Assembly (NCBI GenBank): GCA_021604525.1
Contig: BQJD01000009.1
Location: 62,001-126,000 of the forward strand
Reading direction: 5' to 3'
DNA length: 64,000 bases
From: a marine bacterium B5-7
GTDB taxonomy: Bacteria; Pseudomonadota; Gammaproteobacteria; Arenicellales; CAJQKF01
Shown: positions 61,510-63,670 of the stretch, piece by piece
Numbering within the stretch: the stretch's first letter is position 1
Layout of the letters: every line of letters starts with the position of its first letter
Position numbers and translations under genes: made by a program
The notes under the pieces: model-generated
What the model was told of the DNA's origin: nothing
The model's database searches: none
What the model saw: the letters and a program-made list of their open reading frames with translations, nothing else

Positions 61510-61586
61510 GCGCCCGTAGCTCAGTTGGATAGAGTACCTGGCTACGAACCAGGTGGTCGGAGGTTCGAATCCTTCCGGGCGCGCCA
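61510..61586 (+). tRNA. tRNA-Arg (anticodon ACG)
   Basis: The cloverleaf can be drawn in full: acceptor GCGCCCG with CGGGCGC, anticodon stem CCTGG/CCAGG with loop CTACGAA (anticodon ACG), T-arm with GGTTCGAATCC, and an encoded CCA end. A34 is expected to be edited to inosine. Confidence 0.96.
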
Positions 61587-61649: not shown

Positions 61650-61712
61650 ACCATGCCGTAATGGTAGCGAAGACTAGAAAATTGTCACTATAGGCCTTAC
61701 CATTATGGTAAG
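61650..61712 (+). promoter_or_regulatory. Operator of the MqsR-MqsA module
   Basis: A perfect 17-base palindrome, CTTACCATTATGGTAAG, occupies 61696-61712 and overlaps the toxin start codon at 61705. A second ACCAT...ATGGT pair with a wider spacer lies at 61650-61665. MqsA-type antitoxins repress their own promoter through such palindromes. Confidence 0.7.
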
Positions 61713-62094
61713 TTACAGTTCTTCTGGAAATGGAACATCGAAATCCAACGATCGTCAGCTTGATGGGCCTCTCTATTCGCTTGAGCGTTTAATCGCTGTG
61801 GCAAACAACAAGAAGGCTTATATCGTAAATGATCGAGCGATTCAGGATATTGAGAATCTCGGTTGGGACAATAGCGATGTTTGTAGATTGGTCTGTCATT
61901 TAGAGGACAAGCATTACCACGGCTCTGAGAGATGTCAGACAAGTAATCAAATGTCTGTGGACTGTGATGCCTACGTAATCGAGCGAATTGAGACCACTGA
62001 ATTCGGAAATAGCATATGCGCCCGCTACTACCTGAAACTCGCGTTAACTAAATCTGGCAATCTTCTTCTCATTGTTAGTTGTCATCTTTCTTAG
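61705..62094 (+). CDS. mqsR: MqsR-like toxin (RNA interferase)
   Basis: This 129-aa protein matches the MqsR family: YSLERLIAVANNKKAYIVND, the conserved GWDNSDVCRLVCHLEDKHYHG helix and strands, and a late YYLKLALTKSG segment with the catalytic-site lysine/tyrosine region. MqsR cleaves mRNA at GCU-type sites. It is eight to nine bases in front of the antitoxin gene. Confidence 0.8.
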   Translation: MVSYSSSGNGTSKSNDRQLDGPLYSLERLIAVANNKKAYIVNDRAIQDIENLGWDNSDVCRLVCHLEDKHYHGSERCQTSNQMSVDCDAYVIERIETTEFGNSICARYYLKLALTKSGNLLLIVSCHLS

Positions 62095-62103
62095 GTTTTA
62101 ATC

Positions 62104-62718
62104 ATGTCCCGAAATAGAATCTGCCCGGTTTGCGATGCGAAGGGTCTTATTCAGAAGACAGTTTCTAGATCGCTTACTCATTCAGATGTTACAGAGGACG
62201 TTAGCGGCTTCCTTCGTTCTGTTTGCGAGAGTTGTGGGACTGTCTCAGTTGACCCCACGCAATCGCGACACAATAAGCGGCTGGTTCAAAAATTTAGAAA
62301 GAAAGCAGATGGTCTCCTTTTGGGGGAGCAGATATTAGCCATTCGGGAAAAATATCAAATAACTCAATTACAAGCCTCCAAGATGTTTGGGGGTGGGCCC
62401 GTCGCGTTCTCTAAGTATGAATCAGATGAAATTTCCCACAATAGATCGATGGACCTGTTATTAAGAATTGCTTCTGAATCACGGTTAGTATTTTGGCGTC
62501 TAGCCGAAATTGCAGGTATTAGCTGGTCAAAGGACTCGATGTCTTATGCTACCGGCCGATTTAAACCTGTAGAGAATAAAACACACAACACCAGGGTGTC
62601 GTTAATATCTGCAAATTCAGAGAGATATACATTCGCAGAGCTAAATACTGACATTGCCGCCAATTCTGATCAATATAGTAACTTGAGTCGCGATGAAACC
62701 CAGTCTGCTACAGCTTAG
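62104..62718 (+). CDS. mqsA: MqsA-like antitoxin with long C-terminal extension
   Basis: This 204-aa protein has an N-terminal zinc domain (CPVCDAKG and CESCGTVS), and an XRE-type HTH (EKYQITQLQASKMFGGGPVAF, SKYESDE). The typical MqsA ends near residue 135; here about 65 extra residues follow, ending hydrophilic. In toxin-antitoxin-chaperone systems such tails are the chaperone addiction (ChAD) segment. It overlaps the SecB-like gene by 26 bases. Confidence 0.82.
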   Translation: MSRNRICPVCDAKGLIQKTVSRSLTHSDVTEDVSGFLRSVCESCGTVSVDPTQSRHNKRLVQKFRKKADGLLLGEQILAIREKYQITQLQASKMFGGGPVAFSKYESDEISHNRSMDLLLRIASESRLVFWRLAEIAGISWSKDSMSYATGRFKPVENKTHNTRVSLISANSERYTFAELNTDIAANSDQYSNLSRDETQSATA

Positions 62719-63217
62719 GCACTATAAATTAGAACTGCTTAATATCGAGCCGAGTAGCAAATTCGCATCTGATTCAGAGGACGTTTATCCTGACTTCGAG
62801 CATGCGGATTTCGTTGCAAGTATCGGATTCGGAAAACGGGCTGACGAGGAGAACGAAACCGACTTTGCGGTTCGGCTCGAATTGTCCTGCTCCCCTGCGG
62901 TAGGAAAGATATTCCCATATTCGTTCTCAATCGCTGCTTTAGGCTTTGTATCGCTAGCAAGGACGGAGGGACTCAACAATGACCCAGCCAAGCTTGCTGC
63001 CGTAAACGGTCTTGGTCTGTTATATGGTGCGATGAGAGAACTGATGTTACTTATTACTGGACGGTTTGAGAACGGCCCCATCATGTTGCCCAGCGTCAAC
63101 TTCATCGACGCTGGGGAAGAAGTTGTAATGCAGTACGAGAAGGATAAGGAAGCTGCGGAATTAGATCGAAAAATAAGGCCGAAGAAAAAGCTATCCAGAA
63201 AAAAGAGCCGTAACTAA
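62693..63217 (+). CDS. SecB-like chaperone of a toxin-antitoxin-chaperone module
   Basis: This 174-aa protein resembles SecB-like TAC chaperones: a strand-rich first half and the conserved VNGLGLLYGAMRELMLLITG then IMLPSVNF. The end is lysine- and arginine-rich. It probably folds the antitoxin and protects it; the general SecB is usually encoded elsewhere, so this is unlikely to be the export chaperone. Confidence 0.72.
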   Translation: MKPSLLQLRHYKLELLNIEPSSKFASDSEDVYPDFEHADFVASIGFGKRADEENETDFAVRLELSCSPAVGKIFPYSFSIAALGFVSLARTEGLNNDPAKLAAVNGLGLLYGAMRELMLLITGRFENGPIMLPSVNFIDAGEEVVMQYEKDKEAAELDRKIRPKKKLSRKKSRN

Positions 63218-63319: not shown

Positions 63320-63670
63320 TCACCAGTGCAACATCCCCTGGTAGTCCTGTGTACCATGCTCAGATAATAGCTGCGCATCGGCTTCCAGCTTCTTGGCTAT
63401 CGGTATCATACTGAACAGGCGATATTTCACCGCCTCTGAGGCTTTGGAAGGCTCAAGTGCATTGATATCCTCTAGATAGTCGTTAATCGCCCCTAAGGAC
63501 TCTCTAGCCATCGACACGAGGTCTCTGGCATCTTGTTTCGTGAGCGGTCGCAACCTTGTTTTTTCATCGTCTTCATAAAGACAGTCACACGCAATCAGGG
63601 CTGACTCAACATAGAGCATACCTGGTTGCTTCTGAACGGGAACGATTACGGCCCTTGGGTCTTCATTCAT
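63320..63670 (-). CDS. Unrecognised 116-aa protein
   Basis: I do not recognise this protein. It is mostly helical, has a pair of cysteines (ALIACDCLYEDD), and is not membrane-bound. Convergent with the TAC module, it may belong to an island behind the tRNA. Confidence 0.5.
   Translation of the reverse strand: MNEDPRAVIVPVQKQPGMLYVESALIACDCLYEDDEKTRLRPLTKQDARDLVSMARESLGAINDYLEDINALEPSKASEAVKYRLFSMIPIAKKLEADAQLLSEHGTQDYQGMLHW

What the first reader, a model, noticed from the sequence alone, without database searches (positions are those of the whole stretch)
61650..63217. Tripartite MqsR-MqsA-SecB-like toxin-antitoxin-chaperone module
The toxin and antitoxin resemble MqsRA, but the antitoxin has about 65 extra C-terminal residues and overlaps a SecB-like chaperone gene. 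This is the form of TAC systems, in which the tail makes the antitoxin dependent on the chaperone. Such MqsRA-SecB examples are few, and many TAC systems defend against phages. The palindromic operator covers the toxin start codon.
Basis: partly seen in the sequence, partly recalled or inferred. Interest (0 to 1): 0.6.

Follow-up and report, generated by a model that had tools for sequence, protein, structure and literature searches.

The report
MqsR–MqsA–SecB toxin-antitoxin-chaperone operon
This is a three-gene bacterial self-poisoning switch (toxin, antidote and the antidote's helper chaperone) of a kind already known to stop viruses of bacteria; the one fresh detail is that its probable control site sits on the toxin's start codon, and the same site sits there in most of its distant relatives.

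Summary
Toxin (61705-62094): PF15723 MqsR over its cut-off, predicted fold closest to E. coli MqsR (Z 13.2). Antitoxin (62104-62718): MqsA zinc finger plus HTH, 204 aa against 131 in K-12, with a ~66-residue tail. Third gene (62693-63217): overlaps the antitoxin by 26 nt; its model matches SecB and the TAC chaperone Rv1957; 11 of 12 aligned relatives hit Pfam SecB. The genome has a separate true SecB. Such systems are not few: 25 of 37 MqsA-type loci from viral contigs carry a SecB-like third gene; one version is in 18 of 5,426 complete E. coli genomes. MqsRAC from E. coli C496_10 is published as a T2-defence TAC. So: new member of a known kind.

New here: the palindrome TTACC-N5-GGTAA lies in one fixed register on the toxin start codon in 26 of 39 non-redundant loci (0 of 4 two-gene MqsRA controls); a GTG-start version keeps its symmetry by a paired change, and site type goes with an antitoxin recognition-helix residue. 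The toxins lack the essential Lys56 of K-12 MqsR and carry an invariant His in place of its Lys96. Phage defence by this copy is inferred, not shown.

The parts
61650..61665 (.). Second, weaker palindrome ACCAT-N6-ATGGT, candidate upstream operator
   Evidence: Perfect 5-bp arms, spacer 6; shares the ACCAT/ATGGT half-sites of the start-codon site, the only two such matches in the window.
61696..61712 (.). Palindromic operator candidate CTTACCATTATGGTAAG covering the toxin start codon; core TTACC-N5-GGTAA (61697-61711)
   Evidence: 8-bp perfect arms; same core in the same start-codon register in 26 of 39 non-redundant toxin loci, 0 of 4 two-gene MqsRA controls.
61705..62094 (+). mqsR-like toxin, 129 aa, BECR/RelE-superfamily RNase-like
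   Evidence: PF15723 E 2.8e-6; AF2 model pLDDT 87.6, MqsR 3hi2 Z 13.2, 91 aligned, 2.4 A; hhalign to canonical MqsR E 1.8e-10.
62104..62718 (+). mqsA-like antitoxin, 204 aa
   Evidence: PF15731 E 6.5e-17, TIGR03830 E 1.5e-29; PDB MqsA E 3.1e-7.
62122..62244 (+). Antitoxin zinc finger, Cys 7, 10, 41, 44
   Evidence: The four Cys are invariant in alignments A2 (6 sequences) and A7 (12 sequences).
62317..62478 (+). Antitoxin helix-turn-helix with recognition motif FGGGPVAFSKYE
   Evidence: Match to MqsA HTH chains; motif survey.
62518..62715 (+). C-terminal extension, about 66 residues, candidate chaperone-addiction (ChAD) region
   Evidence: Beyond the end of the MqsA models; K-12 MqsA is 131 aa; the aligned relatives carry variable tails too.
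62693..63217 (+). SecB-like TAC chaperone, 174 aa, overlapping the antitoxin gene by 26 nt
   Evidence: AF2 model pLDDT 82.9; best PDB hits SecB 1fx3 E 1.5e-7 and Rv1957-ChAD 5mtw E 1.7e-6; 11 of 12 aligned relatives hit PF02556; alignment profile hits SecB chains E 6.3e-4.

Best explanation
A tripartite toxin-antitoxin-chaperone (TAC) operon of the MqsRAC kind. The toxin is an MqsR-type RNase that would cut mRNA. The antitoxin neutralises it only while the SecB-like chaperone holds its C-terminal tail, and as a dimer represses the operon through a palindrome centred on the base before the toxin start codon. Newly made phage protein would draw the chaperone away, the antitoxin would be lost and the toxin freed, stopping phage growth. 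Shown here by computation: the gene families and folds, gene order, tail, and the conserved start-codon site. Inferred from published relatives: chaperone dependence, RNase activity, the phage trigger. Inferred from sequence: that the antitoxin binds the site.
For: Families and order. Toxin fold: MqsR at Z 13.2, next entry 5.9. Chaperone fold and family: SecB and Rv1957. Same order toxin, MqsA, SecB-like in plasmids of Thiodictyon, Cupriavidus, Acinetobacter, Shewanella, with an unnamed third gene in Shinella and Polaromonas, and in viral contigs. Separate housekeeping SecB, PF02556 157.5 bits. Published: MqsRAC of E. coli C496_10 blocks T2; MqsR toxicity rescued only with MqsA plus MqsC (PMC9519451, passages; PMC10783111, passages); V. 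cholerae RC385 MqsRA-SecB TAC with ChAD at MqsA 136-176 (PMC5105189, passages). Several relatives sit beside other defence genes: next to drmA, after hsdM/hsdS, after brxL. Start-codon site in 26 of 39 loci.
Against: The window chaperone alone misses Pfam and NCBIfam SecB. Toxin identity to K-12 MqsR is low and the essential Lys56 is absent (essentiality from PMC9636575), so RNase activity is not assured. The locus itself shows no known defence neighbour, and the contig ends 2 kb downstream. 0 of 59 other related genomes carry the antitoxin, so there is no conservation evidence within the lineage. No experiment.
Confidence: 0.87

Rival explanations
1. It is a TAC, but serves addiction or stress response (stabilising a mobile element) rather than phage defence.
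For: Many relatives sit on plasmids and viral contigs; the first TACs were studied as stress modules (PMC5105189); no defence neighbour in the window.
Against: An MqsRAC relative protects against T2; some relatives are next to DISARM, type I R-M or BREX genes.
Confidence: 0.3
2. A decayed or inactive locus: toxin without catalysis, kept as a repressor system.
For: Essential Lys56 of K-12 MqsR is Gly73 here (with PMC9636575).
Against: D88, Y90, K111 and H127 are invariant in 22 of 22 aligned toxins; all three frames are intact.
Confidence: 0.06
3. The conserved start-codon palindrome acts as an mRNA hairpin that hides the start codon, not as a DNA operator.
For: The arms could pair with a short loop (sequence reading only, not computed; the site itself).
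Against: Near-perfect dyad with a one-base centre suits a dimeric HTH; site type goes with an antitoxin recognition-helix residue; the K-12 MqsRA operator has a similar half-site.
Confidence: 0.1

Closest known systems
MqsRAC of E. coli C496_10
   Same: Three genes in the same order; MqsR, MqsA, SecB-like MqsC; published as chaperone-dependent and T2-defensive (PMC9519451, PMC10783111, passages).
   Different: That locus was not fetched under its name; the window chaperone belongs to another SecB-like branch (VNGASLLYGA type) than those of the L042/L043-type loci, of which L043 is in E. coli genomes.
Vcho-TAC of V. cholerae RC385 (MqsRA-SecB)
   Same: MqsRA with a tailed antitoxin and SecB-like chaperone (PMC5105189, passages).
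   Different: Not compared by sequence here.
M. tuberculosis Rv1955-1957 (HigBA1-SecB-TA)
   Same: Chaperone fold: Rv1957 5mtw is among the best structural hits.
   Different: Toxin and antitoxin are HigBA, not MqsRA.
CmdTAC (PD-T4-9)
   Same: SecB-like third gene, weak profile match to CmdC.
   Different: Toxin is an ADP-ribosyltransferase (PMC11618068, passages); not found here.
E. coli K-12 MqsRA
   Same: Toxin and antitoxin families.
   Different: Two genes, no tail; operator AACCTTTTAGGTT at -42 before a strong ribosome site, not on the start codon.

Membership tests
TAC system | Operon of toxin, antitoxin and SecB-like chaperone | tested here: met
TAC system | Antitoxin with C-terminal extension absent from two-gene homologues | tested here: met
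   204 aa against 131 aa in K-12; tail beyond the MqsA models.
TAC system | Antitoxin needs the chaperone to neutralise the toxin; tail binds chaperone | not testable with these tools
   Needs expression assays.
MqsRA | Toxin in PF15723, MqsR fold | tested here: met
   E 2.8e-6, over cut-off; Z 13.2 to MqsR.
MqsRA | Catalytic Lys56 and Tyr81 of K-12 MqsR | tested here: not met
   Lys56 aligns to Gly73; Tyr81 to Tyr109, which is Phe in some relatives; Lys96 to invariant His127 (residues from PMC9636575). So fold and family hold, K-12 chemistry does not.
MqsRA | Antitoxin with Cys4 zinc finger and HTH | tested here: met
SecB (PF02556) | Match to the SecB model by sequence | tested here: inconclusive
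   Window protein alone: none; 11 of 12 aligned relatives match, E up to 1, best 2.6e-8.
SecB (PF02556) | SecB fold | tested here: met
SecB (PF02556) | Export function with SecA | not testable with these tools
   The genome has a separate full SecB.
CmdTAC (PD-T4-9) | ADP-ribosyltransferase toxin CmdT | tested here: not met
   The toxin is MqsR-like; no PADLOC toxin hit.
Anti-phage defence system | Protection against phage | not testable with these tools
   Only by analogy to MqsRAC of E. coli C496_10.

The most novel reading that the evidence does not exclude
The MqsRAC lineage has its own, so far undescribed control: the antitoxin's operator is fixed on the toxin start codon, displacing the ribosome-binding site, so that one bound antitoxin (kept in shape by the chaperone) shuts the very start of the toxin gene; and its toxins use a histidine-based active site in place of the lysine/tyrosine chemistry of K-12 MqsR. 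The window is one clear case of both.
Probability: 0.5. Interest if true: 0.42.

Novelty: new member of a known kind. Interest (0 to 1): 0.3.

Why it matters
It adds a diverged MqsRAC from a genome with its own SecB, and shows that these TACs are common in viral contigs and plasmids rather than rare. The start-codon site gives a simple, testable handle on how a chaperone-dependent antitoxin regulates its own operon: does the antitoxin bind it, and does losing the chaperone both free the toxin and switch the operon on? The toxin's changed active site says that K-12 MqsR may be a poor guide to how TAC MqsR toxins cut RNA.

Tried and rejected
Rejected: that the third gene is not SecB-like. Rejected: CmdTAC membership. 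Considered and left open: an integrative element at the tRNA-Arg (61510-61586). No second copy of any 16-base stretch of the tRNA was found in the window, L021, L038 or L039, but the contig ends 2 kb downstream. Orthologue neighbourhoods of the upstream EamA gene in G001 and G003 have no tRNA there, so they give no empty site. G+C across the operon (0.445-0.456) does not stand out from its flanks. A conserved promoter upstream of the site: in 23 aligned loci no column from -75 to -11 passes 0.7 bit, so leaderless or near-leaderless transcription is only an idea. Non-SecB third genes were compared with the chaperone profile: no relation found (probability 0.3%). A toxin-profile scan of viral contigs could not be run.

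Rows dropped and choices made: four loci were left out of the profile (L003, L060, L070, L075) and the starts of L073, L074, L076 were moved by 3 bases from those to the in-frame start that lies in the site's register; one search repeats the count by a fixed rule without hand-picked starts. In one search, of the 13 non-redundant loci without the strict site, 4 are two-gene controls (L199, L203, L204, L205), 2 are cut at a contig or record end (L005, L056), L014 has a broken toxin frame, and L003, L060, L070, L072, L075, L202 lack it in that register (L072 has AACCAT-N-ATGGTT there; L075 and L070 have such a site upstream). L057 and L068 had no toxin in the held DNA and are outside the 39. One search lists 25 of the 26 site-bearing antitoxins; L200 did not fit the motif used.

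Full report
Observation. The toxin matches PF15723 MqsR (E 2.8e-6, over cut-off), the antitoxin PF15731 (E 6.5e-17) and TIGR03830 (E 1.5e-29). The third gene matches nothing in Pfam or NCBIfam by itself; PADLOC gives the CmdC model PD-T4-9_C at E 0.0023. A tRNA-Arg lies just upstream, 61510-61586.

The third gene is SecB-like. Of twelve aligned sequences, the window's included, 11 match PF02556 at E up to 1, best 2.6e-8 (the window's own is the one that does not), and 10 match NF004392 SecB; the profile finds SecB chains in the PDB at E 6.3e-4. The AlphaFold2 model (mean pLDDT 82.9; four strands, two helices) has SecB or Rv1957 chains as its 19 best PDB hits, E 1.5e-7 to 1.2e-5. The genome has one PF02556 match, elsewhere, at 157.5 bits, so this copy is not the cell's export SecB.

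The toxin is MqsR-like with a changed active site. The model (pLDDT 87.6) finds E. coli MqsR as its only clear match: Foldseek E 1.3e-4, Z 13.2 over 91 residues at 2.4 A, the next entry 5.9. Profile comparison with four two-gene MqsR gives E 1.8e-10. In K-12 MqsR, Lys56 and Tyr81 are essential (PMC9636575, passages seen). Here Lys56 aligns with Gly73, Tyr81 with Tyr109, which is Phe in some relatives, and Lys96 with His127; Asp88, Tyr90, Lys111 and His127 are invariant in 22 of 22 aligned toxins. That the histidine takes part in catalysis is inference.

The antitoxin has the four zinc-binding Cys and the HTH, then about 66 residues beyond the MqsA models; K-12 MqsA is 131 aa. Tails of relatives vary in length and sequence, as described for TAC antitoxins (PMC5105189, passages).

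Relatives are many. Plasmids: toxin, MqsA and annotated SecB in Thiodictyon, Cupriavidus, Acinetobacter, Shewanella; Shinella and Polaromonas have the same order with an unnamed third gene. Viral contigs: 37 loci with an MqsA relative; 23 of 37 have an adjacent ORF that scores as SecB-like with my profile at E up to 1 (22 at 0.01), and two more, L063 and L067, match PF02556. One of these versions is in 18 of 5,426 complete E. coli genomes at 99% identity or more. In the window's own lineage it is sporadic: 1 of 60 genomes, the window's own. The chaperone branch also occurs with Gp49/HigB-type pairs (L008, L019, L020), so chaperone and TA pair have probably been exchanged.

The start-codon palindrome. 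CTTACCATTATGGTAAG (61696-61712) covers the ATG at 61705; only 4 perfect palindromes with arms of 8 or more and spacer up to 3 occur in the window. By a fixed rule, TTACC-N5-GGTAA with the toxin's in-frame start codon at base 9 of the site occurs in 26 of 39 non-redundant toxin loci. Of the 13 others, 4 are two-gene MqsRA (0 of 4 have it), 2 are cut at an end, 1 has a broken toxin frame, 6 lack it there. Of four TAC-type plasmid loci fetched after the pattern was seen, L197, L200 and L201 fit it and L202 does not. The 21 other toxins aligned are 20-35% identical to the window's. In 23 loci aligned on the start, conserved columns (over 0.7 bit) are -10 to +7 without the centre, and +10; none from -75 to -11 (see Tried and rejected for dropped rows and moved starts). 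Symmetry is kept through paired changes: a GTG start with ACCAC opposite in Cupriavidus, GGTT with AACC in L072. In K-12 the operator AACCTTTTAGGTT is at -42, before a strong ribosome site; MqsA binding to its operator there is published (PMC4803016, passages). The residue pair after FGGG in the recognition helix is never xN in the 25 site-bearing antitoxins that could be read, and is xN in 8 of 10 without the site. This fits the antitoxin being the binder, but two clades would give the same pattern, so it is not proof. That K-12 Asn97 contacts DNA is recalled, from no call.

Known or new. TACs with MqsRA are published: V. cholerae RC385 (PMC5105189), and MqsRAC of E. coli C496_10, which blocks T2 and whose toxin needs MqsA plus MqsC for rescue (PMC9519451, passages) and which works with restriction systems (PMC10783111, passages). 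CmdTAC shows a phage capsid protein drawing off the chaperone (PMC11618068, passages); a higBAC case with lambda tail protein is cited in PMC11980606 (passages). [quoted passage not shown] I found no description of a start-codon operator in TACs in the searches; these cover open-licence papers only, and I saw their listings and the passages named above, not full texts.

Verdict. The family-wide start-codon site and the histidine-type toxin are modest additions that can be tested at once.

Noticed in passing
L062 4608-5120, L065 4581-4895, L069 4581-4877, L076 4582-4935: MqsR-type toxin plus tailed MqsA followed by a third gene without a SecB match at E 0.1 (L065 and L069 40% identical; L062 with a zinc-ribbon-like end): perhaps another kind of helper in place of the chaperone.
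   Followed up: partly
L003 3319-8423; L006 1-3980; L018 3695-7630; L201 1-3013: TACs lying inside or beside other defence operons: DISARM drmA, type I R-M methyltransferase and S subunit, an hsdS-like ORF (named by eye), BREX brxL. Published MqsRAC works together with restriction.
   Followed up: partly
window 63320-63670 (-) and L021 1768-2121, 2118-2474, 2471-2779 (-): A run of four small minus-strand ORFs (102-118 aa) right after the TAC, up to near the contig end; the first has no Pfam match and a weak relative elsewhere in the same genome.
   Followed up: no
L008 5016-6525, L009-L012, L019, L020: Chaperones of the window's branch paired with Gp49/HigB-type toxin and HTH antitoxin in Burkholderiales and others: chaperone exchange between TA families.
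   Followed up: partly
window 61510-61586: tRNA-Arg(acg) directly before the operon, a usual integration target; no repeat of its end was found in the held DNA.
   Followed up: partly
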